Of a stretch of 64,000 nucleotides of DNA, positions 43,370 through 62,802 are shown piece after piece (position 1 is the first letter of the stretch; each line of letters starts with the position of its first letter). A program made the translations under genes and the position numbers. Source of the stretch: Algoriphagus sp. CAU 1675 (lineage in GTDB: Bacteria > Bacteroidota > Bacteroidia > Cytophagales > Cyclobacteriaceae). The notes under the pieces were generated by a model that searched no databases, was not told the DNA's origin, and saw only the letters and a list, made by a program, of their open reading frames with translations. The stretch lies in contig NZ_JARHUI010000003.1 in the NCBI RefSeq assembly GCF_029222925.1, forward strand, positions 541,721 through 605,720, written 5' to 3'.

Positions 43370-43384
43370 CCTACTTTCGTGCCA
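43370..43384 (-). promoter_or_regulatory. Sigma-54-like promoter of permease 1
   Basis: On the minus strand TGGCAC-N5-TAGG. The -24 part is a perfect match to TGGCAC; the -12 part keeps its G but lacks the following C. Predicted start near 43359, about 58 nt before the permease 1 ATG, and 69 nt downstream of the palindrome at 43453. Confidence 0.55.
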
Positions 43385-43385
43385 T

Positions 43386-43422
43386 AAAAAAAGCCCCTAT
43401 TTTTCACATAGGGGCTGTTTTT
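43386..43422 (-). terminator. Terminator of the DUF1080-Gfo/Idh unit
   Basis: Stem AAGCCCCTAT/ATAGGGGCTG with a TTTTCAC loop; on the minus strand it ends in a run of T. It insulates permease 1 from the oxidoreductase gene. Confidence 0.82.
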
Positions 43423-43452
43423 CATAATATTCTCTAGAAATAACTCGAACAT

Positions 43453-43474
43453 TTTCGTCCGCAAGCGGACGAAA
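43453..43474. promoter_or_regulatory. Palindromic activator-type element, copy 1
   Basis: A perfect palindrome: arms TTTCGTCCGC and GCGGACGAAA separated by AA, preceded by CTCGAACA. It is not followed by a T-run, so it is not a terminator. The same element, with few changes, recurs at 50760, 55293 and 62781, always 66-70 nt upstream of a sigma-54-like motif. Confidence 0.65.
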
Positions 43475-43489
43475 GACATCTGGTCTTAT

Positions 43490-44842
43490 TTAGAATTTTC
43501 TGTATTTACCATGCAGGTATTGATTGGCCTCTTTTTCCTCAAACTTTGCTTTTTTGCTATCCCAATGAAGGGTTTGATTAGGAAATCTTCCTGCAATCAC
43601 CCCCAACAGAATGGTCTCTGTCAATCTAGAAGCATAGGAAAATGGTGCGGAGGTTTCATCCTTACCCAAAATCGCATCCACAAATTGATGGTAATGCTTC
43701 TTACTCTCAGAATCATAATCTTTAACAGGCTTGCCCAAGTTAAATTTCTCAATGTCCATTTCCTTATATTCCCCATCTACGATCAAGCGAGGAAGTTGCT
43801 GGAAATGAGGCAATAACAACCTTCCCTTTTCACCCATAAACATCGCACCCTGATCAGGAAGCTGGTCTCCATTTGGCAATTTCAAATCCTCATGCTCAGC
43901 AGGAGCACCTGACCCATCATACCACACCCATTTCAATGTTTCAGCAGTATAAGGAGTACTTGGAAACTCATAGGTTACAATATTATGCTCTGGGAATCCA
44001 TATCCTGTCGGTTGGCGACATTCATTGACAATGGTTCTTGGCACATCCAATTGTAAGGCATTGTATGGGGTATCAAAAATATGAACCCCCATATCACCCA
44101 AGGTTCCACAACCAAAGTCCAACACCTTTCTCCAGTTACCCGGATGATATTCCCCTTCCTTGTAAGGCCGCTCTGGAGCAGTACCCAACCAAAGGTTCCA
44201 ATCCAAGTTTGAAGGAACTGGATCACTTCCTACTGGAGTTGGCTCATCAGTTCCCCAATTTTTTGGAGACCAAGCACGAACAGTATGTACTTTCCCGATG
44301 ATTCCCGACTGAATCAAAAGGGTCGCCAGTTTATAGTCATAAAAAGAATGAACCTGGATTCCCATTTGAGTGACCAATTTTTTCTTCTCGGCTAATCTTT
44401 TCATTTCCCTAGCCTCTGACACGTGATGGGTCAATGGCTTCTGGCAATACACCGGTTTATCCATGTGCATGGCCATTAAGGAAGCAGGAGCATGGGTGTG
44501 ATCTGGGGTAGAAACCACCACAGCATCAATCTCATCTTCCATTTCTTTCAGCATTTCCCTGTAATCTGCATAGGTTTTTGCATTCGGGAACAAAGCTTTT
44601 GCTTTGGCAACCATATTGGAATCAACATCACAAAGAGCCACTACATCAACTGCCTCATGGGATGAAATGGCATCCAAATCAGCCATTCCCATCATTCCTA
44701 AGCCAATGTGGGCAGTTCTGATTCTACCGTTTGCCGTTTTGATTTCAGATAAAAGAGATGGTGCCAAAGCGGCACCAAGCAAACCAATACCACTTCTTTT
44801 AACAAAGTCTCTCCGGTTTATGCTGACTATTTTCTTGCTCAT
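43490..44842 (-). CDS. Tat-exported Gfo/Idh/MocA oxidoreductase
   Basis: Protein of 450 residues with a twin-arginine signal (NRRDFVKRSGIGLLGAALA). The NAD(P)-binding Rossmann fold (IRTAHIGLGMMG) is followed by the family motif CQKPLTHH, with the catalytic Lys, and a C-terminal beta-sheet domain. Several family members oxidise sugars at C3. The upstream gene (11-nt gap) is a DUF1080 hydrolase, so the pair fits the known 3-keto-glycoside degradation scheme. It ends at the terminator at 43386-43422. Confidence 0.88.
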   Translation of the reverse strand: MSKKIVSINRRDFVKRSGIGLLGAALAPSLLSEIKTANGRIRTAHIGLGMMGMADLDAISSHEAVDVVALCDVDSNMVAKAKALFPNAKTYADYREMLKEMEDEIDAVVVSTPDHTHAPASLMAMHMDKPVYCQKPLTHHVSEAREMKRLAEKKKLVTQMGIQVHSFYDYKLATLLIQSGIIGKVHTVRAWSPKNWGTDEPTPVGSDPVPSNLDWNLWLGTAPERPYKEGEYHPGNWRKVLDFGCGTLGDMGVHIFDTPYNALQLDVPRTIVNECRQPTGYGFPEHNIVTYEFPSTPYTAETLKWVWYDGSGAPAEHEDLKLPNGDQLPDQGAMFMGEKGRLLLPHFQQLPRLIVDGEYKEMDIEKFNLGKPVKDYDSESKKHYHQFVDAILGKDETSAPFSYASRLTETILLGVIAGRFPNQTLHWDSKKAKFEEKEANQYLHGKYRKF

Positions 44843-44853
44843 TTTTGGATCTA

Positions 44854-45528
44854 TTATTTTGACGTTAATTCTTTAATTCTGATGTTTTTAAATCGGACCA
44901 CATCCCCATGACCCAGGAAACCGATATGACCAGTGGATCTTTCGAGGCCAGGATGATCTTTCCCATCCAAAGTCCCATTTTTTGATGCTTCCAAATAGTC
45001 TCCTTCCAAAATAGTCTCACCATTGAGAATGATCTTGATTTTTGGATGCTCAACGATGACTTCCTCTTGGTTCCATTCCCCAACTGGTTTCAAGTATCCT
45101 TTTTTAGCGGCAATAACCCCATAAACAGAACCATGGTATTGATATTCGTGAAGCTGGGAATATTTTTCCGCCGTATTATCCAAAATCTGGAGCTCCTTGC
45201 CTTCATAGGCCGCATCCCCTTCCAAAGGAGCATGGATTCCTAATCCATTATTGGCTCCTGGTGTCAATTGGAACTCAAAACGAAGAACAAAATTCCCATA
45301 TTCCTTTTCTGTATAGAGGTTACCTCCGCCCGTCCCTTTGGGATCAATGACAATCATCCCGTTTTCGGCCCTATAGGAAGTTTTGTTTCCTACCCAACCA
45401 TCCAAATTAGTTCCGTTAAACAACTGGGTAAAACCTTGCTCACTGCCAAGACTTTGAGCAGAAACGCTAAAAGTGGGAATGACAAAAACCGCAAGGATAA
45501 TTACGGCATTAACCAATTTTTTCAGCAT
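44854..45528 (-). CDS. DUF1080 3-keto-disaccharide hydrolase-like protein
   Basis: Protein of 224 residues with a signal peptide (1-24, SVSA then Q). It is a concanavalin-like beta-sandwich of the DUF1080 type, with GFTQLFNGTNLDGW at the start and GHIGFLGHGDVVRFKNIRI at the end. Characterised relatives hydrolyse 3-keto-disaccharides. Its 3' neighbour is a Tat-exported Gfo/Idh/MocA dehydrogenase, 11 nt away, the enzyme class that makes or consumes 3-keto sugars. The pair is interleaved in the exporter cluster without an obvious functional link. Confidence 0.85.
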   Translation of the reverse strand: MLKKLVNAVIILAVFVIPTFSVSAQSLGSEQGFTQLFNGTNLDGWVGNKTSYRAENGMIVIDPKGTGGGNLYTEKEYGNFVLRFEFQLTPGANNGLGIHAPLEGDAAYEGKELQILDNTAEKYSQLHEYQYHGSVYGVIAAKKGYLKPVGEWNQEEVIVEHPKIKIILNGETILEGDYLEASKNGTLDGKDHPGLERSTGHIGFLGHGDVVRFKNIRIKELTSK

Positions 45529-45735: not shown

Positions 45736-48147
45736 CTATTCATCCTTCAAGACCTTTGCTGGGTTTTTCTTGGCCGCAGCTAAAGAATGTACTCCGACAA
45801 TTACCAAACATAGAATCAATACACTCAAACCTCCAATTACAAAAAGTAGATACGGCATATCAATCTTGTAATTGAATCCATTTAGGTATTCCCGGGAAAG
45901 ATAATAAGTAGGAATACTGGCCAATAAAAAGGAAATACCGATCAATAGAATATAATCTTTGGAAATCAGACTAAGAATTTGAAAAAGACTAGCTCCCAAA
46001 ACTTTCCTAACGCTGATCTCTTTCATACGCTGGGTAATCGTAAAGGAGGATAATCCAAACAAGCCCATTCCTGAAATGAGCAAGGCCAAAAAGCAGGCAA
46101 AGCCCAATACATTTCGAATCCTAAAATCCTCCTCATAAAATCTATTCATTTCCAGGTCTAAAAATTTGAAGTCAGGTGTTTCGTAAGGATAAACTGCCAA
46201 GTATTCTGCTTTCAGGCTCTCAATCATTTCCGATAGGTTTCTCCCTTCAGCGAGCTTGGCAGAAATCACGTTTTGGTATTCGGGATTTTGAATCAAAACC
46301 ATAGGCAGAATTCCTACTTTCAGACTTGATGAGTTAAAGTCATTAACCACTCCCACAATGGTCTGGCTTTTCCCTCCAAAGTCCACCTGTTTACCTACCG
46401 CTTCCTCAGGAAGTTTCCATCCCACCTCTTTTAAGAATTGCTGATTGACCAACAATTCTGAAGAGTGGTCTCCAAGATTTCGACCTGAAAGTAAGTTCAA
46501 GCCATTGACTGCAATAAATGAACTGTCAATATTCTTTACCTGGGTAAAAAATTTAAGCTCTGTAGTATCTTTGGGAACACTGATATCCGAGGTCCATAAT
46601 CCAGTCGAAGAAACTGGATCTCCACTTAGGCTACTTCCTAGGATGTAAGATTTTTGAGCCAATCTTTCCCTAAGCTGGGTAGCCCTTTCCACTCCTGACC
46701 TAAAAGGAAGATAGGAATAGACTACCATATCATTGTTGAATCCAACAGGATGGCTGGTCACATAGCGAATCTGGAAACTAACAATCAGTACCAAAATGAT
46801 GAAAGCGATAGAACTTGAAAATTGAAGGATGCTCAAGTTTTTTCTTAGAAAAACCCCAATCGAAAATTTCCCCGTCATGACCTTTTCCCCTTTTAAGGCC
46901 CGATGAGGCTGATAATTTGAAAGCACCAGCGAAGGATAAATACCTGCTATCAGTGTGATTCCAACTGTAAATAGGAACAAAAACAGAAAGTTATTCCCTG
47001 AAAAATAATCCATTGTGAAATTTTGAGGCAGATAACTCTGGAAGGTTTTAAAGATCAATTCTGAGAGAATTACCCCAAGTAGGGCCGCTATTAACACCAT
47101 CAAATAGGTTTCTGCCAAAAACTGGAAAACCAACTGGCTTTTACCTCCTCCCAGGGTTTTTCGGATTCCGACTTCCTTAGCCCGGCCAATGGCATGTGCG
47201 GTTTCCAAATTGATAAAATTGAGACAGGCCAGAACCAAAATTATTCCTCCAACTACAAGAAGTCCCTTGAGTAATGCTTTGGAAATCCCTCCATTGGAAT
47301 AGGAATCCGAAAAATGCATTTCGTAAAGTGACTCAAAGTCAAAAGTAGTCTTGCCGTCTTCCTCCTGATCAGCATAATACTTTTGCTCAATTGCCCTAAG
47401 GCCAAGTTTTAGTGACTCTACCTGCGCTTCCGGATTTTTCTTGAAAAACAACTGACTACTGGAGTTAACGTTATTCCAGCTACCCAGATTATACAAACTC
47501 TCCTTTTTATTTCTCTGGGCTGTGACATAGGAAATAAATTCCCGATAGGTTAATTCTGTATTTTCTTTAAAATCTGAAACTACACCGGAAACGGTGACAA
47601 AAATAGAATCCACATCTACAAAAAGCATTTCCTTTCCAAGCACCTGGGCAGGTGATAAACCTGGAAAGTAGGATTTCATACTTTCCTCTGTGATGACCAC
47701 CTGATTGGGTTCGGAAAGTGCTTCCTTAGGATTCCCGGAAAGCCACTCTCTGGGAAAAAGCCGGAAAAACCCCTCATCAGCAAAAGTCACATGATTTTCC
47801 CTCCCAAAAACCTGATTGCTTTCCGGTAAAGCAATCAAGGTTTGATACAAAGTATACAACCTTCCTGATTGCTCAACTCCTGCTACTTCATCCCTTAGTA
47901 CCTCACCCAAAGGTCCCGGAGCTCCAGGAGAACTATACTTCATTGCACCAAAATCAGTGGTAGTCATCACTCTAAAGATCTGATCTCCATCCGGGTGAAA
48001 CCTGTCAAAACTATGGGCATGCCAAACCACATTGAAGATTAGGAAACAAATGGAAATACCCATTGCCAGTCCCAAGACATGTATGATAGTCCTGACCCTG
48101 TTTCGAAGAATATTCCTAAAAGCGATTTTGAAATAGTTTTTTAGCAT
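45736..48147 (-). CDS. FtsX/MacB-like ABC permease, paralogue 2
   Basis: Protein of 803 residues with the same layout as paralogue 1: N-terminal anchor (KNYFKIAFRNILRNRVRTIIHVLG), two large periplasmic domains, helix blocks near 280-440 and from 680, KEISVRKVLGAS and the C-terminal motif KNPAKVLKDE. It is the most divergent of the six in its termini. It begins 53 nt after paralogue 3 with no promoter between, so both are likely to share the promoter at 50680. Confidence 0.9.
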   Translation of the reverse strand: MLKNYFKIAFRNILRNRVRTIIHVLGLAMGISICFLIFNVVWHAHSFDRFHPDGDQIFRVMTTTDFGAMKYSSPGAPGPLGEVLRDEVAGVEQSGRLYTLYQTLIALPESNQVFGRENHVTFADEGFFRLFPREWLSGNPKEALSEPNQVVITEESMKSYFPGLSPAQVLGKEMLFVDVDSIFVTVSGVVSDFKENTELTYREFISYVTAQRNKKESLYNLGSWNNVNSSSQLFFKKNPEAQVESLKLGLRAIEQKYYADQEEDGKTTFDFESLYEMHFSDSYSNGGISKALLKGLLVVGGIILVLACLNFINLETAHAIGRAKEVGIRKTLGGGKSQLVFQFLAETYLMVLIAALLGVILSELIFKTFQSYLPQNFTMDYFSGNNFLFLFLFTVGITLIAGIYPSLVLSNYQPHRALKGEKVMTGKFSIGVFLRKNLSILQFSSSIAFIILVLIVSFQIRYVTSHPVGFNNDMVVYSYLPFRSGVERATQLRERLAQKSYILGSSLSGDPVSSTGLWTSDISVPKDTTELKFFTQVKNIDSSFIAVNGLNLLSGRNLGDHSSELLVNQQFLKEVGWKLPEEAVGKQVDFGGKSQTIVGVVNDFNSSSLKVGILPMVLIQNPEYQNVISAKLAEGRNLSEMIESLKAEYLAVYPYETPDFKFLDLEMNRFYEEDFRIRNVLGFACFLALLISGMGLFGLSSFTITQRMKEISVRKVLGASLFQILSLISKDYILLIGISFLLASIPTYYLSREYLNGFNYKIDMPYLLFVIGGLSVLILCLVIVGVHSLAAAKKNPAKVLKDE

Positions 48148-48200
48148 GTCTTATACAGAATAATATTTAAAAACTTGAAACAGGCCCTCATCTCTTTTCT

Positions 48201-50645
48201 TTATTCATCCTTGAGCGTTTCCACTGGATTTAATCTGGTGGCTTTCAAGGCTTGAAAAGCAACAATCAAAAGCGTAAAAATCACTCCTCCTACAACTAAT
48301 AGCACAAAACTCACCCAGGAAGGCCATTCCTTAACTGCAAATTGGGAAAGCCAAGACTGCATCAGATACCCGCTTAAAGGAATAGCTACAAACACCCCGA
48401 TCAAAGTGATACTCAAAAATTCCTTTCCGAACATCCAGGATATCCCCCATTCCGAAGCTCCCAATACTTTCCGGATCCCGATTTCCTTGGTTCTTCCAGC
48501 TATCGCAAGAGCCACCATGGCAAACAAGCCCATGGAAGCAATCAAAATGGCGATTAAGGCTGCCATTAATACCATCTTCCCCAATCTTTCATCATTTGCA
48601 TATTGGGACTGAACTGTCTCATCCAAAAACCTAAATTCAAATGTCTCCCCGGGGAAGTTTTTGTTCCACTCCCCTTCTAGCATGGCTTTGGTTCTTTCAA
48701 AATTCCCCGAATTCAACTTAACCAATACTCTAGGGTTGGTATTGGATCGGATCATCAAATTGGAAATACCGCTCAAAACTGCATCAGGTGATTTGGCAAA
48801 AAGAATTGGCTCTATCGGTGAATAAAGAGAAGCATGATGGTAATCCTTGACCACCCCAACTATCTGATGGGAATCAAAACGAGATGCATGCAACTGTTCG
48901 GCTAGAGGGTCTTCCCAGTTCAAAGCTTTGGCAAAGGTTTCATTGATCACCATGGCACTACTGTCCATTCCAGGATCGGGATTCAACCCTCTTCCTTCCA
49001 CCAATTCCAACCCAAGGGTTTCCAAATAGTCTCCACCTACAAAATTCACATAAAAATCAAACAGACTTCCGTCTTCCCTAGGAAATGAAACTCGCCAAAA
49101 GGCATTATCCCCATAGGTTCCGACTGAAATTGCTGTGGATAACACCTCGGTTTGGGAAGACAACACTTGCCTGAAGGACTCAGCTTTCGAAAAACTCTCT
49201 TTAAGCGATTTTACAAAGCTCGTGGAGGGAACATCTGGAATCTCAATTACAACAACTTGCTCCTGATTGAATCCCAATTCGAAGTTTCGGATCGCATTCA
49301 TTTGATTGACCATGATCAGAGTAGACGCGATCAGTAAAAAGGAAATGAAAAATTGAAAAGCTACCAGACCTTTTCTCAAACCCTGCTTCCCAAAATGGAT
49401 TGAAAGATTCCCTTTTAAAACCTTGATTGGTCTGAGTCCGGATAGAAAAAATGCCGGATAGGCACCAGCCATAGCAGTGATCAACAGAATCAAACCTGCC
49501 AATATCCCCAATTGTATAGGTCCATAAACCAGATTCAGCTCTTTTTCGAAAAGGGTATTAAAAGTTGGCAAAATCAATTCAGCCAAAACAACTCCCAAAA
49601 TTGTGGCGGCCAAGGTGGTCAAAAATGCCTCCGTTAAAAACTGAAAAATCAACTGGGGAAAATTGGCCCCCATGGTCTTTCTAACTCCTACTTCCCTAGC
49701 GCGTGTAGTCGCCCTTCCGATGGCCATGGTGGTAAAATTGATACAGGCAATCAGCAATACCAAAAATGCAATCCCTGCCAAAATCCAAAGTAAAGAGGCC
49801 TTGGTGGTTTCCAACCCACCGTTTCCAGCGGCTTCGGAAAAATGCATTTCCGAGATCGGAACCAAAGAATAATAGAATTCCCCAGGCACATATTCTTCCC
49901 CGAGGGATTTTTTCATCAGGGCCTCCATACCCCTGTGGATACTAGCCACCTGGTCCTCAGATTGAAGCTTGACAATATTACTGCCCCATACATTATACCA
50001 AGAATTCATACCTTCCTCATCTGTGAAAAAGTCCATATTTTCTATTGGCATCAACATATCAAACCTCAAAGAAGAATTGGCCGGAACATCTTCCAAAAGT
50101 CCACTCACAACATACTCTTGGTAATTTTCACCCATTTTCATTCGAATCGACTTTCCGATCGGATTTGCCTCTCCAAAATATTTTTTAGCCAAAGCCTCTG
50201 TGACCAAAACGCTGTATTTATCCTTCAGCTGAGTGGATGGATCTCCCTGCAACAACTGAAAATCAAAAATTTTCAGAAAATCGGGGTTAACCATCAAAAA
50301 CGGCTGATTCTGGGAGCTCTCGTCCGGTAGTTTTGCCTGAACCGCACTTCCTACCATACCCGAAATCGCCTCAATTTGTGGAAATTCATTTCGAAAGGTT
50401 GGCTCCAAAATCATGGGAGATGAAAAAGATTCCGTCATTTCTCCATCCACCATTTCATGGCTTTTTACCCGGTAAATCCGCTCACTTCCGGGATGGAAAT
50501 TATCAAAGCTCAATTCAAACTGGACAAAAAAGAGAATCAGAATTCCAACTCCAATACCCAGAGACAAGCCAATCAAATTGATACCGGTATGCAACTTGTA
50601 TTTTAGAAGATTTCGAAATGAAATTTTAAGGTAATTCTTGATCAT
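48201..50645 (-). CDS. FtsX/MacB-like ABC permease, paralogue 3
   Basis: Protein of 814 residues from ATG 50645, which gives the family start MIKNYLKISFRNLLKYKLH; ATG 50657 would add four residues. Two FtsX-type halves as in the others, with REVGVRKTMGAN, KEIGIRKVLGAS and an end RLNPVETLKDE close to paralogue 1. It is first in a permease-permease unit without an ATPase of its own. Sigma-54-like motif and palindrome lie upstream. Confidence 0.92.
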   Translation of the reverse strand: MIKNYLKISFRNLLKYKLHTGINLIGLSLGIGVGILILFFVQFELSFDNFHPGSERIYRVKSHEMVDGEMTESFSSPMILEPTFRNEFPQIEAISGMVGSAVQAKLPDESSQNQPFLMVNPDFLKIFDFQLLQGDPSTQLKDKYSVLVTEALAKKYFGEANPIGKSIRMKMGENYQEYVVSGLLEDVPANSSLRFDMLMPIENMDFFTDEEGMNSWYNVWGSNIVKLQSEDQVASIHRGMEALMKKSLGEEYVPGEFYYSLVPISEMHFSEAAGNGGLETTKASLLWILAGIAFLVLLIACINFTTMAIGRATTRAREVGVRKTMGANFPQLIFQFLTEAFLTTLAATILGVVLAELILPTFNTLFEKELNLVYGPIQLGILAGLILLITAMAGAYPAFFLSGLRPIKVLKGNLSIHFGKQGLRKGLVAFQFFISFLLIASTLIMVNQMNAIRNFELGFNQEQVVVIEIPDVPSTSFVKSLKESFSKAESFRQVLSSQTEVLSTAISVGTYGDNAFWRVSFPREDGSLFDFYVNFVGGDYLETLGLELVEGRGLNPDPGMDSSAMVINETFAKALNWEDPLAEQLHASRFDSHQIVGVVKDYHHASLYSPIEPILFAKSPDAVLSGISNLMIRSNTNPRVLVKLNSGNFERTKAMLEGEWNKNFPGETFEFRFLDETVQSQYANDERLGKMVLMAALIAILIASMGLFAMVALAIAGRTKEIGIRKVLGASEWGISWMFGKEFLSITLIGVFVAIPLSGYLMQSWLSQFAVKEWPSWVSFVLLVVGGVIFTLLIVAFQALKATRLNPVETLKDE

Positions 50646-50679
50646 GGGTAGTTGCACTTTTTTTGATTCATTCCCTTAT

Positions 50680-50694
50680 TCTAGGATTATGCCA
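50680..50694 (-). promoter_or_regulatory. Sigma-54-like promoter of permeases 3-2
   Basis: On the minus strand TGGCAT-N5-TAGA. The -24 GG and the -12 G are kept; the following C is missing. Predicted start near 50669, 24 nt before the ATG at 50645, and 66 nt downstream of the palindrome copy at 50760. Confidence 0.45.
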
Positions 50695-50759
50695 GAAAAA
50701 CCAGCCCAAAATGGCTAAAAAGGCCACTTTCCCTCCAATTCTATTTTCAATTCGAACAA

Positions 50760-50781
50760 TATTGTCCGTCATCGGGCAATC
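50760..50781. promoter_or_regulatory. Palindromic activator-type element, copy 2
   Basis: Degenerate copy: arms TTGTCCG and CGGGCAA (one mismatch) around TCAT, preceded by TTCGAACAA as in copies 1 and 4. It lies between the divergent permease 3 and bestrophin genes. Confidence 0.5.
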
Positions 50782-54319: not shown

Positions 54320-54417
54320 CAGGATTGTGGATTAAGATGAAAACATATACCCGTACTTGGAAAAGAAAAACAATGAAAGCTGTAGAAGAGCCTATAATTG
54401 AACCAGACTAAAAAAGA

Positions 54418-54450
54418 AAAGTACCGATTAATGACGCTAATCGATACTTT
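54418..54450 (-). terminator. Hairpin after the DUF2807 gene
   Basis: Stem AAAGTA-C-CGATTA / TAATCG-A-TACTTT with one internal mismatch and a 7-nt loop. On the minus strand it is followed by TTCTTTTTT, as expected for a terminator. Confidence 0.75.
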
Positions 54451-54479
54451 CTCTTCATTCTACTGGGTTGTTAGTGATT

Positions 54480-55172
54480 TTACTTTTTGATCAGCTTGGT
54501 GGATCCGCTCATTGCGATCCCTCTCATTTCAGGATTACCTCGGTAGTAAATATTACCAGATCCGGAAGAAGCTACTTTCATGCTTTCTTGAACGGAAATC
54601 CAAGTTTCACCAGAACCGGATTTACCTATTTTCACGGAACCTGCTACCAAATCAATTCCCTCAAAATCTCCGGAACCGGACTGTCCAACTTCCAATTCCT
54701 CAACTTCTCCACCTTCAATTTGAACATCTCCCGAACCGCTAATGCCCACGCTCAATTTGCCTGCATTGAGATCCTGCATCTTGATCAAGCCTGATCCTGA
54801 AACTCCAATAGCCATCCGATCTGTAGTGACGTCAGACTCTACAAAAATGGCCCCAGAACCAGAAGCACCTAGACCTTCAAGGTCTCTTACAGTGACATAA
54901 AAAGTAAGATCCACATTGCGGTAATTCCCTCTTTCCAAACCCAATTTCAGTCTTCCGTCATTTACTTCCGTGATCACCTTATCCAAGGCTATGTTTCCGG
55001 ATTCGACCCGAACTTCGTCCCTGTTTCCGATTTTCACATATACCTCCCAACTTCCTCCGGATTCAATTTTGGTGAAATTTCCCGGAGTTCGGGTTTCTGT
55101 CCCCTGAGCGTTGACTGTGTAGCCCATTAGGAATAAAAGAAAGATTAGAGCAGTGGTTTTGATAGTTTTCAT
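54480..55172 (-). CDS. DUF2807 (head-GIN type) secreted beta-helix protein
   Basis: Protein of 230 residues with a signal peptide (1-22, TVNA then Q). The mature part consists of short repeats ending in GSGS or SGSG (LGASGSGAIFVE, VGISGSGDVQIE, VGQSGSGDFEGI and so on), giving a right-handed parallel beta-helix as in the DUF2807 putative adhesin family. Function is not known. Here it sits inside the permease cluster with its own palindrome and sigma-54-like promoter, so it is probably a periplasmic or surface component of the same response. Confidence 0.87.
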   Translation of the reverse strand: MKTIKTTALIFLLFLMGYTVNAQGTETRTPGNFTKIESGGSWEVYVKIGNRDEVRVESGNIALDKVITEVNDGRLKLGLERGNYRNVDLTFYVTVRDLEGLGASGSGAIFVESDVTTDRMAIGVSGSGLIKMQDLNAGKLSVGISGSGDVQIEGGEVEELEVGQSGSGDFEGIDLVAGSVKIGKSGSGETWISVQESMKVASSGSGNIYYRGNPEMRGIAMSGSTKLIKK

Positions 55173-55208
55173 AATTTTTTGAGATATAGATTGGTATTAC
55201 ATATTATT

Positions 55209-55223
55209 CCAGAGACTATGCCA
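55209..55223 (-). promoter_or_regulatory. Sigma-54-like promoter of the DUF2807 gene
   Basis: On the minus strand TGGCAT-N5-CTGG. The predicted start near 55198 is 26 nt before the ATG. The palindrome copy at 55293 lies exactly 70 nt upstream. Confidence 0.5.
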
Positions 55224-55292
55224 AGAGAAAAAAACCAGCTTTTTAAGCGCTATTGCCACTTTCCATAAAAAGAACTGTCCGACTTATCTAAG

Positions 55293-55314
55293 TTTCGACC
55301 GTATGCGGACAAAC
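55293..55314. promoter_or_regulatory. Palindromic activator-type element, copy 3
   Basis: Imperfect copy: TTTCGACCG and GCGGACAAA around TAT, agreeing with copy 1 at 17 of 22 positions. A further half-site CTGTCCG is present 18 nt to the left. The remaining part of this 329-nt gap (55315-55443) holds nothing that I recognise. Confidence 0.55.
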
Positions 55315-55443
55315 ATTCCAAACAAAAACTGGGGGGCCTTCCTAAAATTCAAGCCTTTCATTTCTTGGACTTTAAGCTCTCTAAGTATTAGATGCAGTCG
55401 GATTTTAAAAGGTTGCATTCAAAACCTAGGTAAATCAAATAGA

Positions 55444-55467: not shown

Positions 55468-55501
55468 TATTACAGAGTGCTTCGCTTTTCTAAATACCTT
55501 G

Positions 55502-57952
55502 CTATTCACTTTTCAATGAGTTCACTGGATTGGCTGTTGCAGCTTTAATTGACTGGTAACTCGTAGTCAGCAAAGCAATTACAACAGCAAACAACCCCGC
55601 CCCTAAAAACACCTGCCAGCCTAATTCCTGTTTAAATTGATAGTCCTTTAACCATTGATTCATAATCCACCATGCGATTGGAGAAGCAATCAAAAAGGCA
55701 ATCACTACCAGCTTGGTAAATTCCTTGGAAAGCAACACGATAATGCTTCCAATAGTCGATCCCAATACTTTTCTAATTCCGATTTCTTTGGTTCTCTGTT
55801 CAGCTGTAAATGCTGTCAAGGCAAACAAACCCAGGCAGGCAATAAGAATAGCAAAACCGGCAAAAATCCCAAAAACCTTTCCTAAACGAACTTCGGATGC
55901 ATACATTTTTCCAAATCGGTCATCCAAAAAGGAGTAAGTAAAAGGCTGACCCGGGGCCAATTCCTTCCACTTAGCACCAATTAACTCAACAACATCATTT
56001 GTATTGGCGGAATTGAAGCGGAAGGAAGCTATCCCCCTTGGGCGATTACTCAAGAAAATCATGACAGGACCAATGTTCTCCTTCAAGGATTCGAAATGAA
56101 AATTCTCCACCACCCCGACCACTGTTTTTCCCTGCAAATTGTCCAAGTTCAATTCGTCAAAATCTGCCAAAGCGTAAATTCTTTTTCCAACAGGGTCCCC
56201 ATCAAAATTGAAGTTACGGGCAGCGGTTTCGTTCAGAATCACTGCATTGGAATCAGAAGGAAAGTCCAAGGAGAAATTCCTTCCTTCCACAATATTCATC
56301 CCCATAGTTTCTATGTAATCAAAATCAACTGCCCAGTTTTGAAGACTCACTAGATTTTCGGTTTGCTTTGGGTCTTTTCCTTCCGACCACCATGGAGAAT
56401 CACTCCTCCAAGTACCCGAAACTGGCAAATACCCTGTAATTGTCCCTGCATCAATCATACTGTTGGCCAAAATTTCTCTTTTGAATGTTTCAACTTGGTC
56501 CCCCAATGCATAGACATCATCCACAGTGATGATTTGTTCCTTATTGAAACCTATTTTTTTGTTTTGGATATAATTCAGCTGGTTGAAAACCGCAATGGTG
56601 GCAATGATCAGAATAATGGAAATAGAAAACTGAAACACCACCAATGAGCTGCGAATAATCCCACTTTTCAAACCTAAGGACATATTTCCCTTCAAAATGC
56701 TGATCGGCTTAAAACCGGAAAGGAAGAAAGCAGGATACGTACCCGCTAAAAAGCCAACAGCTATGGCCCCAAATATCAAAACTCCATAAAACCCACCGGC
56801 AGCAAATGGAATTTGAAGAGATCGGCCCGATAATTCATTAAAAACAGGAAGTAAAACCCCTACCAAAGGAATTGCAATCAGGAAGGACACTCCACTCAAA
56901 AGAATGGATTCCATTAAAAACTGACGGATCAAATGGGATCTGTAGGAACCCATTACTTTTCGAATCCCTACCTCCTTAGCCCTATTGGAGGATCTTGCAG
57001 TGGAAAGGTTCATGAAGTTGATACAGGCTATGATCAAAATAAACAGTGCAATGGATATAAAAAGGTATCCATAGGTTAAGTTGAAATTAGGTTCAAACTC
57101 ACCTAGAAAATCACTTTTAAGGTGGATATCATTCAAGGCCTGGAGATTGAACTCAACCTTGTCCCCATTGCCATTCATGGCCTCAATGGTTGCACCCTCT
57201 CCAAACAAATGACTAAGTTCGGGTTCAAAATACTTTTTGATCAGAGAAGGAAATTTTGCATCCATTGCCTCAGGGCTAGCACCTTCTCTCAGCTTGACAT
57301 ACGTTTGAAAATTATTACTTAACCAAGTGTTGCTTTGAGCCTCCTCCAATCCTTCTGCTGCCAACAAAAAACCAAAATGAAAATGGGTATTCTCTGGAAA
57401 ATCCTGATACACTGCCGTAATTCGAAAATCTAATCGATTGTCGAAATTGAGGAATTTTCCTACTGCACTTTCTCCCGGAAAATACTTTTCTGCAATACGC
57501 TGACTGATCGCCATAGTATTGGGCTCGGCAAGCGGGTTTTCCTGGTCCCCTTCTAAAATGGGCTGTTCAAAAACCTTAAAAAAATCCTTTCCTGCCCATA
57601 CCGCATCATTTTCCTTGATGCTCTCATCCTCCTTCTTTACCAGATAAGAGCCCTGCTGTCTGAAATGGACTGCAGCTTCTACTTCTGGAAACTCCTCCGG
57701 CAAGGTCTCCGCCATAGGAGCGGGTGCATATACCATATCCCAATTATGCCCCCCAAAAATGATGTCACCATGGATCCTATAAATCCGGTCTGAATCTTTG
57801 AAGTGCTTGTCATAACTGAGTTCATTGATAACAAAAAGAGTAATGATCATACAAACTGCCACCCCTACGGACAATCCCAGTATATTGATGAAGGTGTAAA
57901 ACTTATGCTTCATCAGGTTTCTAAATGCTATTTTGATGTAATTTTTAAACAT
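55502..57952 (-). CDS. FtsX/MacB-like ABC permease, paralogue 5
   Basis: Protein of 816 residues: FKNYIKIAFRNLMKHKFYTFINILG anchor, two periplasmic domains, helix blocks near 290-430 and from 690, KEVGIRKVMGSY and KEIGIRKVLGST loops, end ATANPVNSLKSE. It is the closest paralogue of number 6 by its C-terminus. It begins 125 nt after permease 6 on the same strand; no promoter-like element of the cluster type lies in that gap, so it is probably the last gene of the HlyD unit. Confidence 0.92.
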   Translation of the reverse strand: MFKNYIKIAFRNLMKHKFYTFINILGLSVGVAVCMIITLFVINELSYDKHFKDSDRIYRIHGDIIFGGHNWDMVYAPAPMAETLPEEFPEVEAAVHFRQQGSYLVKKEDESIKENDAVWAGKDFFKVFEQPILEGDQENPLAEPNTMAISQRIAEKYFPGESAVGKFLNFDNRLDFRITAVYQDFPENTHFHFGFLLAAEGLEEAQSNTWLSNNFQTYVKLREGASPEAMDAKFPSLIKKYFEPELSHLFGEGATIEAMNGNGDKVEFNLQALNDIHLKSDFLGEFEPNFNLTYGYLFISIALFILIIACINFMNLSTARSSNRAKEVGIRKVMGSYRSHLIRQFLMESILLSGVSFLIAIPLVGVLLPVFNELSGRSLQIPFAAGGFYGVLIFGAIAVGFLAGTYPAFFLSGFKPISILKGNMSLGLKSGIIRSSLVVFQFSISIILIIATIAVFNQLNYIQNKKIGFNKEQIITVDDVYALGDQVETFKREILANSMIDAGTITGYLPVSGTWRSDSPWWSEGKDPKQTENLVSLQNWAVDFDYIETMGMNIVEGRNFSLDFPSDSNAVILNETAARNFNFDGDPVGKRIYALADFDELNLDNLQGKTVVGVVENFHFESLKENIGPVMIFLSNRPRGIASFRFNSANTNDVVELIGAKWKELAPGQPFTYSFLDDRFGKMYASEVRLGKVFGIFAGFAILIACLGLFALTAFTAEQRTKEIGIRKVLGSTIGSIIVLLSKEFTKLVVIAFLIASPIAWWIMNQWLKDYQFKQELGWQVFLGAGLFAVVIALLTTSYQSIKAATANPVNSLKSE

Positions 57953-58077
57953 GGCTCAGTTTATTTGAGATAGGTATCTTTTGAATCCAGAGCAGGTATC
58001 AAACTCCTGTCTAAGGCTTCTTTTTAGTTTTTATCGTTTTAGGAGAAATTCTCCCAATTCATGCTTTACTACTCTTC

Positions 58078-60438
58078 TTATTCACTGCGAAGAGAAGTCA
58101 CCGGGTTAGCAGTGGCAGCTTTGAAAGCCTGATACCCCACTGTCAAAAGTGAGATCAGTACCAATACCAATCCAGCACCGGCAAAAATCCACCAGTTCAA
58201 ATCCGTCCTAAACGCATAGCTTTCCAACCAGATATTGGAAAAATACCAAGCAATAGGAGATGCAATGACAATTGAAATTAGAATCAAGCCCACAAAATCT
58301 CTGGACACCAAAGACAAAATCCCAAAGGTTGATGCTCCCATTACTTTGCGTACACCGATTTCCTTTTTCCTCTTCTCTGCTGTAAATGCAGCCAATCCAA
58401 ACAATCCCAAGCAGGAAAGGAAAATGGCAGAAGCACCGAAATAGTTGGCAAGTTTGAGTGTTCTCTGTTCGGATGCATAGAGGCTCTGATAATCCTCATC
58501 CATGAATTTGTAATTCAAGGTTTGACCGGAGATACCTTCATAGACTTGACTAATTCCGGCAATGGTTTGAGCTTGATTTTCGGATTCTATCCGAATCAGG
58601 ATTTTTTGGGCAAAATCCGAGTCGTATTTCAGAAAAGCCGGCTTGACTGTTTCTTTCAAGGACTCAAAATGAAAATCCTTGATCACTCCAATTACCTCCA
58701 TATCATTACCCCAAAGGTTAACGATCTGACCTACAGGATCCAGAAAACCAATGGTTTTTACAGCGGCTTCATTGAGGATGATTTTGCTTTGTTCCTCTCC
58801 GAAATCAGGTGAAAAGGACCTTCCTTGAAGAATCTGAAATCCCATAGTCTCAATGAGTCCCATATTGACTGTAATATTCTCAAATTTTATTTGATCTTCA
58901 GGATCTTTTCCATCCCAACTTAAACCAATGGTAGAACTTGACAAACCCACCAATGGATGAGAAAGACTTGAGGCATTGGAAACACCGGGAACAGTTTTTA
59001 CCTGCTCCAATAAGGCCTCCAATTTTTGCGGATCTACTGAGGAGGAATTGAGTTCCAACAAATGAGCTTGATCATATCCCAAGTTTTGGCTTTGTACAAA
59101 AGACATCTGCTTCCCTAAAACAGCGATTCCAATGATCAATAGCAAGGAAATTCCAAATTGAAAAACAACCAGTCCTTTTCTGGCCAGGAGCTCTCCGAAA
59201 CTCCCTTTCACATTGGATTTCATAACTTCCACTGGCTTAAACCTGGATAAATAAACGGCTGGATAAATCCCTGCCATCAATCCGGTTACCACCCAAATTC
59301 CAAATAAAATCAGGGTCACATCGAGTTGAAATGCAAGCTCCAAAGATTTGGAAGTAAGTTGATTGAAAAGTGGCTGCAGAAGAAAAGTCGCTAACAATGC
59401 CAAAAGCAATGCGAATAAAGATAACATCAGGGACTCTGTGATAAATTGGGTAAAAAGTCCACCCCTGCTGGCACCCATTGACTTCTTTACCCCAATTTCT
59501 TTTAAGCGGCTCATGGATCTGGCAGTAGTCAGATTCATGAAATTGATACAGGCGATGAGAAGGATAAATACCGCAATCCCTGAAAATATCCTCACATAGG
59601 AAATCCTTCCACCTGCTATCTTTCCCTCTTCATAGCTTCCATAGAGGTAGGTATCTCCAAATGGCTGGACAAAAGCCGAAACATTGGATTGAGCATTCTT
59701 GGACTTTATAAAGCCGTGGATTTGCTCATTAAACTGCTCCACATCACTTCCTTTCCTGAGCAAAAGGTGTATTGAGGAGTTAAAATTATCCCAATGTGCA
59801 CCATCCCCCAGCATTTTTAGAAAGTAAGGGAAAGCCAGTAGGTATTCGGGTTTTCGGATGTCCAAATCACCATAATCCCGATAAACACCCGTCACCTCCA
59901 CTTCATTTTGAAAATCAAACACCTGCCAGTGAAGTGACTTACCCAACGCCTGGGCCGGACTTCCAAACAACTTGGAGGCAAGTGATTCAGACAATACCAC
60001 TGAATTAATTCCGGTAAGTGCATTTTCCTTGCTACCGGCTAAAAAATCTATATCAAAAATCCCAAAATAGTCCTGATCAACGAAGTAGCCTTCAGCCTCC
60101 ATACTGTTCTCACCGCTTTCAAACATCACTCCATCGATGTAAGGAGAAAGTCCAGTAGCCAATTCAACCTGCGGAAACTCTTCCTTTAAGGCCTCTGCCA
60201 TTGGGGCTGGTGTATAATCAATAGTAATCAGACCATTGGCATTGTTATGATTGGTAAGCACAGAATAGATCCTGTCGATCTTGTTGTGGTATCGATTGAT
60301 ACTGAGTTCATCTTTGACCCAAAACATGATCAAAACAACCGTTGTAAGACCTGTAGTCAGACCAAAAAGATTAATAAGGAAAATGTGCTTGTGCTTCAAA
60401 AAGCCCCTAAAGGCCAAAAGAATCTGATGGCGTAACAT
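58078..60438 (-). CDS. FtsX/MacB-like ABC permease, paralogue 6
   Basis: Protein of 786 residues, the shortest of the six. N-terminal anchor LRHQILLAFRGFLKHKHIFLINLFG, two periplasmic domains, loops KEIGVKKSMGAS and KEIGVRKVMGAS, and end ATANPVTSLRSE. It follows the ATPase gene after 252 nt in which I see no cluster-type promoter, no strong terminator and no gene, so it probably continues the HlyD-ATPase transcript. Confidence 0.92.
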   Translation of the reverse strand: MLRHQILLAFRGFLKHKHIFLINLFGLTTGLTTVVLIMFWVKDELSINRYHNKIDRIYSVLTNHNNANGLITIDYTPAPMAEALKEEFPQVELATGLSPYIDGVMFESGENSMEAEGYFVDQDYFGIFDIDFLAGSKENALTGINSVVLSESLASKLFGSPAQALGKSLHWQVFDFQNEVEVTGVYRDYGDLDIRKPEYLLAFPYFLKMLGDGAHWDNFNSSIHLLLRKGSDVEQFNEQIHGFIKSKNAQSNVSAFVQPFGDTYLYGSYEEGKIAGGRISYVRIFSGIAVFILLIACINFMNLTTARSMSRLKEIGVKKSMGASRGGLFTQFITESLMLSLFALLLALLATFLLQPLFNQLTSKSLELAFQLDVTLILFGIWVVTGLMAGIYPAVYLSRFKPVEVMKSNVKGSFGELLARKGLVVFQFGISLLLIIGIAVLGKQMSFVQSQNLGYDQAHLLELNSSSVDPQKLEALLEQVKTVPGVSNASSLSHPLVGLSSSTIGLSWDGKDPEDQIKFENITVNMGLIETMGFQILQGRSFSPDFGEEQSKIILNEAAVKTIGFLDPVGQIVNLWGNDMEVIGVIKDFHFESLKETVKPAFLKYDSDFAQKILIRIESENQAQTIAGISQVYEGISGQTLNYKFMDEDYQSLYASEQRTLKLANYFGASAIFLSCLGLFGLAAFTAEKRKKEIGVRKVMGASTFGILSLVSRDFVGLILISIVIASPIAWYFSNIWLESYAFRTDLNWWIFAGAGLVLVLISLLTVGYQAFKAATANPVTSLRSE

Positions 60439-60690
60439 AACTTGAATTTTTGGATTTTTTCCTTGGGATGTACTTTTAGAAAACGGGAAAAGCCCTAGTA
60501 ATTGGAATCTGATTTACCGTTAATTTTCAAATCCCATAGGCATAGTCTGACAAGGCATAAGGAAATCCAAGTCTCCCTGATGCCCACCATTCGGTACTGG
60601 GGAAGTCTCCACAAATCAGAAACCTTACTCCTTAAACCCAGCAAAACAGGAGTGAACTATCCCTTCTCGCTAAAAATCTAAGGGGTTGAA

Positions 60691-61389
60691 TTATACGTGA
60701 AACTGCTCGCGAATATTCTCGGTAACTACCTTACCATCGAAGAGATTGATCACTCTATGCGCATAATTGGCATCATAGGGTGAGTGAGTTACCATCACAA
60801 TGGTAGTCCCTTCATTATTCAGCTCTTCCAATAGCCTCATCACTTCTTCCCCGTTTTTGGAGTCCAAATTACCAGTAGGTTCATCCGCCAGAATTACAGA
60901 AGGCTTGGCAACAATAGCCCGGGCAATAGCCACACGCTGCTGCTGACCTCCGGAAAGTTGCTGAGGAAAGTGATTTCTCCTGTGCATGATATTCATGCGT
61001 GTCAAAACTTCCTCTACCCTTTTTTTTCGTTCATCGGCAGGAATCTTCAAATACAGAAGGGGCAACTCCACATTTTCAAATACTGTAAGTTCATCGATCA
61101 AATTGAAGCTTTGAAAAACAAAGCCAATATTTCCTTTTCTGAGGGAAGAGCGCTGTCTTTCAGAAAATTTAGAGACTTCCTGGTCCAAGAAATAATAAGC
61201 TCCTTCATCGGGGTTGTCCAAAAGTCCTATAATGTTTAGCAAGGTGGATTTTCCACAGCCGGATGGACCCATAATAGCTACAAACTCACCTTTTTTAACT
61301 TCAATTTGGATTCCGTCCAAGGCGGTTGTTTCAACTTCCTCCGTCGTGTACAGTTTCCGGAGATTGACAGTCTTGATTACATTAGTCAT
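60691..61389 (-). CDS. LolD/MacB-type ABC ATPase
   Basis: Protein of 232 residues with canonical motifs: Walker [10 protein letters not shown] (41-49), Q-loop FVFQ, signature [14 protein letters not shown], Walker [10 protein letters not shown]-loop GNLDS and switch His (MVTHS). Unlike the ATPase at 40213 it has no deviations, so it may be the main motor for several of the permeases. It follows the HlyD-type adaptor gene after 18 nt. Confidence 0.94.
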
Positions 61390-61407
61390 GTTTGAGTAGT
61401 TAATGGT

Positions 61408-62658
61408 TTATCTCAGTTCTAATACTTCATTGTTTCCAAAATTCTCATAGCCGGAGACGATGACTTTCTCTCCTTCCACCAATCCTTCCAATACCTCATA
61501 GTATTCCGGATTTTTCCTTCCCAGACGGATGGTTCTTTTTTCTGCATTTCCGGTTGTTGGATTGATCACAAATACCCAATTGCCACCGGTATCCTTGAAA
61601 AATCCTCCAGTTGGCAAAAGCAAACTCTGCTCACTATCTCCCAATTCCAAGCGAATCCTCACACTTTGTCCTCTACGGATTCCCTGAGGACTTTCCCCCG
61701 TAAAAGCCATATCCACCTCAAATCGTCCATTAGTGATCGTTGGATACAGTTTTATGATTTCAAGTTCATGTTCCTGGCCACTTAGTGTAAACTTCCCTCT
61801 TAAACCTTTTCCTATACGAGGCAGATACAATTCATCAATTGGTACTCTCACCTTAAATTCATCCAGAATATCTATTTGTCCATATCTCTGCCCTGAGTTG
61901 ATGGCCTGTCCTATTTCAATTTGTTCCATAGCCAGCTGTCCAGCAATTGGAGCAGTGATGACAAGGTTATTTAAAATTCTCCCTACTCCGTTTAGAGAAG
62001 CTTGCATGCGGTTCTCGGACTGACGAAGTTGATTCAATTGGATAGATCGGGCTATCGAATCATTTTTATAAGAAGTATAGGTGAGTTTCCTGCGCTTCAG
62101 GTTGTATTCATATTGCTCTTTGACTTCCTCAAACTCACGATCAGAAACCAGTTTCTTTTCATGAAGCTCCTTGAAACGTTGGTATTGGGGCTCTAGCAAA
62201 CTGATTTGATAATCTATTTCTGCCAATTGGCCCTGCTGGTTCAAATCATTTTGATCCAAGAGCAGACGGGTCTGCCGAAGATTATTGATTTGCTCATAAA
62301 GCATAGTTTCCCTTTGCATCACATCCAATTGAAGATTGGAATTAGTCAGAGCCAAAATCGTATCTCCCCTTTCAACCAAAGCACCTGACTCCCGAACTAC
62401 ATTTGCCACCATTCCCCCCTCTATCGCATCCAGATAAAAAGTCTGTGCCGGTTCAATTTGACCAGAAACCAAAATGTAATCTGTAAACTCCCCAGTTTTA
62501 ACCGAGGCAATACTCAACCTGTCCTCTTCCACGTTCATCGTAGAGCGATGATCTGCAAAGCCCAATTGGTAAACAACTCCGGCAAGCAAAACGACTCCGC
62601 CAAATCCCCACGCAATCCGTTTCAGGGTCCAAGTCTTCTTTTCAATTTTTCTATCCAT
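61408..62658 (-). CDS. HlyD/MacA-type periplasmic adaptor
   Basis: Protein of 416 residues. Cytoplasmic N-terminus, one membrane anchor (about 15-33), a lipoyl-like domain (from IASVKTGEFTDYILVSG), a long coiled-coil hairpin (about 105-225), the second half of the lipoyl domain (LVITAPIAGQL) and beta-barrel plus membrane-proximal domains. Such adaptors join an ABC transporter to a TolC duct. It is first in the adaptor-ATPase-permease-permease unit and has a sigma-54-like promoter and palindrome just upstream; the only TolC-type gene seen is 22 kb away at the other end. Confidence 0.92.
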   Translation of the reverse strand: MDRKIEKKTWTLKRIAWGFGGVVLLAGVVYQLGFADHRSTMNVEEDRLSIASVKTGEFTDYILVSGQIEPAQTFYLDAIEGGMVANVVRESGALVERGDTILALTNSNLQLDVMQRETMLYEQINNLRQTRLLLDQNDLNQQGQLAEIDYQISLLEPQYQRFKELHEKKLVSDREFEEVKEQYEYNLKRRKLTYTSYKNDSIARSIQLNQLRQSENRMQASLNGVGRILNNLVITAPIAGQLAMEQIEIGQAINSGQRYGQIDILDEFKVRVPIDELYLPRIGKGLRGKFTLSGQEHELEIIKLYPTITNGRFEVDMAFTGESPQGIRRGQSVRIRLELGDSEQSLLLPTGGFFKDTGGNWVFVINPTTGNAEKRTIRLGRKNPEYYEVLEGLVEGEKVIVSGYENFGNNEVLELR

Positions 62659-62696
62659 ATTACTAATGCCATCATTCTTTGGCTATTCCTTTTATG

Positions 62697-62711
62697 CCAA
62701 ATGATGTGCCA
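62697..62711 (-). promoter_or_regulatory. Sigma-54-like promoter of the HlyD unit
   Basis: On the minus strand TGGCAC-N5-TTGG, matching the sigma-54 consensus TGGCAC-N5-TTGC at all fixed bases except the last. Predicted start near 62686, 28 nt before the ATG. Palindrome copy 4 lies exactly 70 nt upstream. Confidence 0.65.
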
Positions 62712-62780
62712 TGAAGAAAAAGGCTTTTTGAGGGCTTTTTGCAGGTTTTACAAAAAATGGCACCTACAAGTCTCGAACAA

Positions 62781-62802
62781 TTTCGTCCGCCAGCGAACAA
62801 AG
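62781..62802. promoter_or_regulatory. Palindromic activator-type element, copy 4
   Basis: Arms TTTCGTCCGC and GCGAACAAAG around CA, preceded by CTCGAACA. About 26 of 31 positions are identical to the copy at 43444-43474 including the left flank. It lies between the divergent HlyD-type and NtrC-type genes. The rest of this 329-nt gap holds only a single half-site (ACGTCCG near 62869) and no other gene. Confidence 0.65.

What the first reader, a model, noticed from the sequence alone, without database searches (positions are those of the whole stretch)
43370..62802. Four-copy palindrome + sigma-54-like promoter array that wires the whole exporter cluster
Seen directly: a 22-nt palindrome (perfect copy at 43453-43474 with arms TTTCGTCCGC/GCGGACGAAA) recurs at 50760, 55293 and 62781, three times preceded by TCGAACA. 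In each case a TGGCAY-N5-NNGR motif follows on the minus strand at nearly the same distance (69, 66, 70 and 70 nt) and sits about 25-60 nt before a start codon. All four lie in front of transcription units of one 24-kb exporter cluster: permease-ATPase-TolC, permease-permease, DUF2807-(permease) and HlyD-ATPase-permease-permease. The fixed geometry is that of NtrC-type enhancer sites plus sigma-54 promoters, and an NtrC-type regulator gene begins at 62988. The inference is one regulon controlled by this regulator.
Basis: partly seen in the sequence, partly recalled or inferred. Interest (0 to 1): 0.88.

Follow-up and report, generated by a model that had tools for sequence, protein, structure and literature searches.

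The report
Sigma-54 enhancer cassette controlling exporter genes
Four gene units of an exporter cluster in an Algoriphagus-type bacterium each carry the same rigidly spaced switch (a protein-binding array and a sigma-54-type promoter about 80 bases away), and the switch recurs before exporter genes in relatives that keep the neighbouring regulator, so it looks like one regulon.

Summary
All four palindromes and TGGCAY-N5-NNGR boxes are where stated; operator centre to TGGCAY is 79, 76, 80 and 80 nt. They are four of the five places with <=2 core mismatches in the 3.81-Mb genome, so no REP-like repeat. A profile built from other genera ranks sites 1, 4 and 2 first to third genome-wide (E 2.5e-14 to 4.8e-12); site 3 only fifth (E 0.003). 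The cassette lies upstream of the orthologous regulator in 78 of 80 relative loci. Of 24 same-genus genomes, the 14 with a >=90% identical regulator are exactly those with cassette matches at E <=1e-15. Spacing is near-rigid: 121 of 122 at 74-84 nt, while box-to-start varies from 16 to 233. Best reading: an NtrC-type regulator drives RpoN promoters of MacB/FtsX exporters. Binding, transcript starts and signal are untested. Sigma-54 control of such permeases was predicted in 2025 (PMC12316311); I found no report of this operator or regulator.

The parts
43446..43474 (-). Operator 1: half-sites CGTCCG 43471-43466, CGGACG 43461-43456, TGTTCG 43451-43446 (F0, R10, F20)
43388..43424 (-). Terminator-like hairpin with T-tract inside the operator-promoter spacer of site 1 (after the Gfo/Idh-type gene); ends approximate
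   Evidence: whole spacer: MFE -18.2, z -3.9
43369..43384 (-). Sigma-54-type promoter 1, TGGCAC-GAAAG-TAGG
38886..43301 (-). Unit 1: MacB_PCD/FtsX permease (40902-43301), ABC ATPase (40213-40887), TolC-type protein (38886-40244)
50753..50781 (-). Operator 2: TGCCCG 50778-50773, CGGACA 50768-50763, TGTTCG 50758-50753
50679..50694 (-). Sigma-54-type promoter 2, TGGCAT-AATCC-TAGA
45736..50657 (-). Unit 2: two MacB_PCD/FtsX permeases (48201-50657 and 45736-48147)
55276..55315 (-). Operator 3 (second arrangement): TGTCCG 55311-55306, CGGTCG 55301-55296, reversed third half-site CGGACA 55281-55276 (F0, R10, R30)
55208..55223 (-). Sigma-54-type promoter 3, TGGCAT-AGTCT-CTGG
51893..55172 (-). Unit 3: DUF2807 protein (54480-55172) and MacB_PCD/FtsX permease (51893-54319); that the permease is co-transcribed is inferred
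62774..62802 (-). Operator 4: TGTTCG 62799-62794, CGGACG 62789-62784, TGTTCG 62779-62774
62696..62711 (-). Sigma-54-type promoter 4, TGGCAC-ATCAT-TTGG
55502..62658 (-). Unit 4: HlyD-type adaptor (61408-62658), ABC ATPase (60691-61389), two MacB_PCD/FtsX permeases (58078-60438, 55502-57952)
62988..64000 (+). NtrC-type regulator, 462 aa (REC, Sigma54_activat AAA+, Fis-type HTH); gene runs to position 64376, beyond the window, and is followed by a histidine kinase with two predicted TM helices

Best explanation
A two-component system controls the exporter cluster. The kinase encoded after the regulator (two predicted transmembrane helices with a very short loop) senses an envelope or membrane signal and phosphorylates the NtrC-type regulator (inferred). 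Regulator dimers bind an array of TGTYCG half-sites set 10 bp apart: one full inverted pair (F0/R10) plus half of a second pair (F20, or R30 before DUF2807 genes) (array shown, binding inferred). Assembled there, the regulator loops about 80 bp of DNA and activates RpoN polymerase held at TGGCAY-N5-NNGR promoters before each of four units: permease-ATPase-TolC, permease-permease, DUF2807-permease and HlyD-ATPase-permease-permease (mechanism inferred from the family). The same cassette stands in front of exporter genes across Cyclobacteriaceae and kin.
For: Four of the five places with <=2 core mismatches in the genome are at this locus; 96 composite hits (<=2 mismatches) at 74-84 nt against 0, 3 and 0 in three controls in window plus 80 loci; a G 13 nt after the T of TGGCAY in 97% of 46 non-HlyD sites, not selected for; third half-site at exactly +20 in 126 of 166 distinct sites, also not selected for; among 122 distinct operators 121 have the nearest TGGCAY at 74-84 nt, SD 1.18 (1.44 with the one outside), against SD 36.2 for box-to-start; cassette upstream of the regulator in 78 of 80 loci; co-occurrence 14/14 against 0/10; 46 of the 56 non-training outside hits before exporter homologs; other-genera profile; RpoN present; F0-R10 pair retained beside regulators of 54-71% identity in other families, e.g. 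L229, L246, L223.
Against: No binding, transcript-start or mutant data. The 10 regulator-less genomes are mostly incomplete, small drafts that also have only 1-2 weak permease matches, so co-occurrence cannot fully separate regulator from exporters. One of the 14 genomes with regulator and cassette (G004) gave no RpoN match. The paralogous regulator has nearly the same recognition helix. C at the usual -12 place is mostly absent, and the regulator has GAFTDA where the family is described with GAFTGA (motif in a passage of PMC7057263). Site 3 scores low with the other-genera profile. Near-canonical TGGCACGN4TTGCW is not enriched in the genome (8 places, reversed control 11). In several distant loci no lattice was found.
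Confidence: 0.85

Rival explanations
1. The operators are bound by, or shared with, the paralogous NtrC-type regulator encoded elsewhere (C10:185703-187082), so the neighbouring regulator is not the sole or main activator.
For: Recognition helix LGLTRASLYRRLEKYGL against LGLTRSSLYRRLEKYGL; similar half-sites, read by eye, upstream of the paralog.
Against: 10 same-genus genomes keep a 61-62% identical paralog and RpoN but have no cassette match better than 1.1e-6. Weak hits in four of them all precede one M16-protease-like gene with the third half-site at +22, not +20, which hints at a separate regulon.
Confidence: 0.1
2. The palindrome is the operator of an unrelated factor (for example a PadR-type repressor) that overlaps sigma-54 promoters driven by another activator.
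For: One of 60 outside hits precedes a PadR-like gene (21.7 bits, under the Pfam cut-off of 27).
Against: No PadR-like ORF was recognised by eye among ORFs of >=100 aa around the cluster (not searched with a PadR model); the near-rigid 80-nt upstream position and the half-site array suit an activator; co-occurrence follows the NtrC-type gene.
Confidence: 0.03
3. The palindromes are REP-like repeats, terminators or RNA elements without a role in activation.
For: The perfect copy is also a hairpin; a terminator-like hairpin lies beside it at site 1.
Against: Not repeated through the genome; no Rfam match in the window other than one tRNA; fixed distance to TGGCAY and half-site lattice.
Confidence: 0.01

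Closest known systems
NtrC-family enhancer sites with sigma-54 promoters (NtrC, PspF, NorR, NifA)
   Same: Regulator domains, inverted half-site pair, upstream position of roughly 100 bp, GG-N10-G promoter; enhancer position and GAFTGA seen in passages of PMC7057263
   Different: -12 box mostly TGG, TGA or AGR instead of TGC; near-rigid spacing over many different targets; partial second dimer site
CbrB subsites F1-R1-R2 in Pseudomonas putida (PMC6296734, passages)
   Same: Three subsites on one helical face, mixed orientation, before sigma-54 promoters
   Different: CbrB subsites are 20-25 bp apart with variable spacing and no palindrome; here 10-bp steps and a strong palindrome
Vibrio qrr enhancers under LuxO (PMC4740811, passages including part of the abstract)
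   Same: Sigma-54 enhancer geometry compared over many genes
   Different: qrr enhancers are described as tolerant of the helical repeat (10-11 bp indels); in the 80 loci here no peak one turn away was seen; a one-turn shift appears only in more distant families
Predicted sigma-54 control of COG0577 (FtsX-type) permeases in Bacteroidia (PMC12316311, passages)
   Same: Same type of target, same sigma factor, same class
   Different: In the passages I saw, no regulator, operator or geometry is given for these permeases
Bce-type modules of Firmicutes: intramembrane-sensing kinase plus translocator (PMC3023708, start of abstract in a search listing)
   Same: Kinase with two TM helices and a short loop linked to an ABC transporter; that both transporters are FtsX-type is recalled
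   Different: Response regulator here is NtrC-type; exporter is of the tripartite Gram-negative kind

Membership tests
Sigma-54-dependent promoter | GG at -24, then N10, then G | tested here: met
   TGGCAY and the G at all four sites; elsewhere TGGCAY was a search criterion, but the G (97% of 46 non-HlyD and of 80 HlyD rows) was not
Sigma-54-dependent promoter | GC (TGC) at -12 | tested here: not met
   C right after that G in only 17% of 46 non-HlyD and 11% of 80 HlyD rows; in HlyD rows a C follows one position later in 83% (TTGGCA); 0 of 4 window sites have C at the usual place. So 'sigma-54-type', not filed as canonical
Sigma-54-dependent promoter | RpoN encoded in the genome | tested here: met
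   One PF04552 match, E 1.9e-57; 36 of 38 genomes, missing in G004 and G034
Sigma-54-dependent promoter | Transcription needs RpoN and starts at the predicted place | not testable with these tools
   needs RNA data
NtrC-family bacterial enhancer-binding protein | Sigma54_activat AAA+ domain and HTH | tested here: met
   PF00158 E 2.2e-67, PF02954 E 1.9e-16, PF00072 E 1.1e-17
NtrC-family bacterial enhancer-binding protein | GAFTGA loop | tested here: inconclusive
   sequence reads GAFTDA; that such variants occur in active members is recalled, not tested
NtrC-family bacterial enhancer-binding protein | Binds an upstream site of dyad symmetry | tested here: inconclusive
   the site exists at a suitable place; binding not shown
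MacB-type tripartite exporter | FtsX/MacB_PCD permease, ABC ATPase, HlyD adaptor, TolC partner | tested here: met
   All 6 permeases, both ATPases, the HlyD and the TolC-type protein match Pfam; that they assemble together is inferred
ADOP permease family TIGR03434 | score over curated cut-off | tested here: not met
   254.6 bits against 622.3 for the one window permease scanned; 0 of 38 genomes over cut-off

The most novel reading that the evidence does not exclude
A portable activation cassette in which a 10-bp half-site lattice and a near-invariant ~80-bp loop form one fixed unit: the regulator needs a set helical phase and length without the usual freedom of enhancer position, the spacer can host the upstream gene's terminator, and copying the cassette recruits new exporter units into one regulon.
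Probability: 0.35. Interest if true: 0.72.

Novelty: new variant of a known kind. Interest (0 to 1): 0.58.

Why it matters
It names a likely regulator, operator and target set for a large family of MacB/FtsX permeases in Bacteroidota, lets the regulon be read in related genomes with a short profile, and offers some 166 distinct natural examples of one sigma-54-type enhancer at near-constant length, a useful test set for DNA-looping models.

Tried and rejected
REP-like repeat: rejected. Canonical TGGCACGN4TTGCW promoters as a guide: 8 places with one mismatch, none exact, reversed control 11. Fifth own-genome site C11:413186: F0/R10 half-sites and TGGCAC at 83 nt, 23.7 bits, 23.3 with the other-genera profile, before small ORFs, one TM2-type by eye; among loci L112-L151 only its own locus encodes that TM2-type protein; left open. 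Palindrome at C10:178128 (2 mismatches) lies inside an ORF: taken as chance. Own-genome places with the third half-site at +22: 3, control 1; only one has a TGGYAY box within range; not resolved. Spacer similarity among the four window sites: five of six pairs score above shuffles, one does not, so shared ancestry or a shared AT pattern may add to the constancy of length. The class-level survey covers 198 genomes, 13 (own included) with a regulator at E<=1e-150; my upstream check could not place the regulator in 8 of 32 loci given and found no lattice in several others.

Literature: nine searches listed no paper that I recognised, by title and start of abstract, as treating this regulator or operator; two searches returned nothing and one search was useless because its terms matched common words. 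This says nothing beyond that open-access library.

Recount: between the submissions I found that loci fetched by name and genomes without names overlap, so sites were counted twice; one search gives distinct counts (189 became 166; 139 became 122), and filled gaps in the Pfam tests. Confidence lowered from 0.86 to 0.85 for the missing RpoN match in G004.
Full report
1. The observation. The four elements are present as described. The perfect palindrome TTTCGTCCGC-aa-GCGGACGAAA lies at 43453-43474, with diverged copies at about 50760, 55293 and 62781. On the minus strand TGGCAY boxes begin at 43384, 50694, 55223 and 62711, with -12 quads TAGG, TAGA, CTGG and TTGG. In the whole 3.81-Mb genome the core (16 specified positions) occurs at 43 places with up to 3 mismatches (reversed control 93), but at only 5 places with up to 2; four of these are the window sites and the fifth lies inside an ORF.

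2. Units. Gene order and domains suggest four minus-strand units: permease-ATPase-TolC; permease-permease; DUF2807-permease; HlyD-ATPase-permease-permease. All six permeases match MacB_PCD and FtsX, both ATPases ABC_tran. A bestrophin-like gene (50850-51836, plus strand) and a pair for a Gfo/Idh-type oxidoreductase and a 3-keto-disaccharide hydrolase-type protein (43490-45528) lie inside the cluster and are not clearly part of the regulon. The regulator (462 aa; receiver, sigma-54 AAA+, Fis-type HTH) starts at 62988, and a histidine kinase follows it beyond the window. The kinase has two predicted TM helices at residues 10-28 and 37-55 of the listed ORF; calling it intramembrane-sensing is inference, and the same simple scan gave two helices cleanly in only 27 of 80 relatives' kinases (it splits the hydrophobic stretches in others).

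3. Relatives. One scan with the regulator gave 80 loci (the best 80 of 267), labelled Algoriphagus, other Cyclobacteriaceae, Fulvivirga, Marivirga and others. In the 560 bp upstream of the regulator, operator plus TGGCAY at 74-84 nt is present in 66 of 80 (<=2 mismatches), 76 of 80 (<=3) and 78 of 80 (<=4); the misses are L102 (only 390 bp available) and L111. In one search, 81 hits carry a HlyD homolog as next gene (window and double counts included). Over window and loci the composite gives 96 hits (<=2 mismatches) against 0 at distances 52-62, 3 at 95-105 and 0 with the reversed core; with <=4 mismatches 131 against 10, 5 and 1. Non-HlyD hits mostly precede permease, DUF2807 or ATPase genes, some only 29-40% identical to window permeases; six had no ORF found or no match.

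4. Operator anatomy. Across 189 composite sites the first half-site TGTYCG (F0) and its inverted partner (R10) are followed by a third TGTYCG at exactly +20 in 145; 13 others have a reversed CGRACA at +29/+30, and 31 fit neither. These include duplicates of the same genomes and a few chance hits; by distinct operator the counts are 126, 12 and 28 of 166. Ten of the 13 reversed cases are DUF2807 promoters, window site 3 among them; three precede permeases. Five Fulvivirga-type sites (L104-L108), read by eye, carry further half-sites at about +30 and +40. The simplest reading is two dimer sites 20 bp apart, the second one half preserved.

5. Geometry. Of 122 distinct operators (<=2 mismatches) with a TGGCAY at 40-130 nt and a following ORF, 121 have the nearest one at 74-84 nt (SD 1.18; 1.44 with the one outside), whereas box-to-start ranges from 16 to 233 (SD 36.2; starts picked automatically) (before removal of duplicates 138 of 139). 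No peaks one helical turn away were seen in the 80 loci; the peak at 92 is the -12 box reading TGGCAT/TGGCAC. In two distant families the boxes lie at 92/93 and 71/72 from the two tandem pairs, one turn off; one search prints each of its distances one too large relative to this convention.

6. Profile scans. R1 (59 sites, the window's four included) gives the window sites E 7.6e-18, 9.9e-17, 4.3e-13 and 2.7e-10 in the own genome, the next distinct place 1.8e-4. Because R1 contains these sites, R2 was built from 31 sites of other genera: it ranks sites 1, 4 and 2 first to third (2.5e-14, 1.1e-13, 4.8e-12), while site 3 is fifth (0.0034), behind C11:413186 (2.1e-4) and level with C1:380274 (0.0036). 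R2 is not wholly independent: its sites were picked with a core motif drawn from the window. Site 3 rests mainly on its match to the DUF2807-type arrangement in other Algoriphagus genomes. Both scans scored only 150 of over 2,300 first-look candidates.

7. Regulon and co-occurrence. Of 38 genomes (own included) 25 had R1 matches at E<=0.01; only 98 candidates per genome were scored, so counts are lower bounds. All 14 same-genus genomes with a >=90% identical regulator have best R1 E <=8.5e-16; the 10 others, with only a 61-62% paralog, have best E 1.1e-6 or none. RpoN is found in 36 of 38, but not in G004, one of the 14. The 10 have one or two weak permease matches, so exporters, regulator and cassette are absent together. 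Among 14 genomes of other families the best match is 3.3e-6 (G033, beside its own regulator's contig region). I fetched the 60 best listed R1 hits outside the own genome: 50 directly precede homologs of window exporter genes (13 HlyD, 29 permeases, 5 ATPases, 3 DUF2807), 9 precede proteins of about 310 aa with a signal-like start (one 70-residue start tested, no Pfam match) and 1 a PadR-like gene. Four of the 60, all among the 50, are identical to R1 training rows, and 13 lie in DNA already held among the 80 loci. What follows those 10 genes was not examined.

8. Terminators in the loop. Of 80 distinct non-HlyD spacers 29 fold with z below -2, typically A-tract, GC hairpin, T-tract; of 79 HlyD spacers 5 do. 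HlyD units diverge from the regulator and so have no co-directional upstream gene; orientation at the other sites was not tabulated. In the window this is clear at site 1 (about 43388-43424). I infer that the upstream unit's terminator sits inside the enhancer-promoter loop.

9. Known and new. Sigma-54 control of FtsX-type permeases in Bacteroidia is already predicted (PMC12316311, passages). A Flavobacterium transcript map with one mutagenised promoter supports sigma-54 promoters in this phylum (PMC9723704, passages). I recognised no report of this regulator, its operator or its geometry in nine searches of the open-access library. I rate it a new variant of a known kind.

10. Shown and inferred. 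Shown: presence, clustering, conservation, geometry, co-occurrence, target genes. Inferred: binding by this regulator, RpoN dependence, looping, kinase signal, exporter substrate.

Noticed in passing
L140, L137, L139, L141 (genomes G005, G006, G008, G002): In genomes lacking the exporter regulator, these weak cassette matches all precede the same M16-protease-like gene (named by eye), with the third half-site at +22 instead of +20; possibly the regulon of the paralogous regulator.
   Followed up: partly
G000:C11:413186-413288 (L116): A possible fifth site in the window's own genome: CGTTCA/CGGACA half-sites and a TGGCAC box at 83 nt, before small ORFs, one TM2-type by eye.
   Followed up: partly
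window about 43388-43424, and spacers of 29 of 80 non-HlyD sites in relatives: Terminator-like hairpins lie between operator and promoter.
   Followed up: partly
L014 / L225 (G000:C10:185703-187082): A 63%-identical paralogous NtrC-type regulator with its own related kinase (34% identical) and an almost identical recognition helix, not next to exporters.
   Followed up: partly
L223 (regulator locus of G033): In another family the regulator-HlyD intergenic region has half-site pairs with TGGCAC boxes facing both ways, suggesting autoregulation there.
   Followed up: no
window 62862-62885: A further inverted element GGTCA...CGTCCG...TGACC near the regulator's start, with a similar CGGACG block in several Algoriphagus relatives (read by eye).
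   Followed up: no
regulator, at the motif KKGAFTDAKE: The loop reads GAFTDA instead of GAFTGA.
   Followed up: no
window 43490-45528: A Gfo/Idh-type oxidoreductase and a 3-keto-disaccharide hydrolase-type gene sit between two exporter units with no cassette of their own seen.
   Followed up: no
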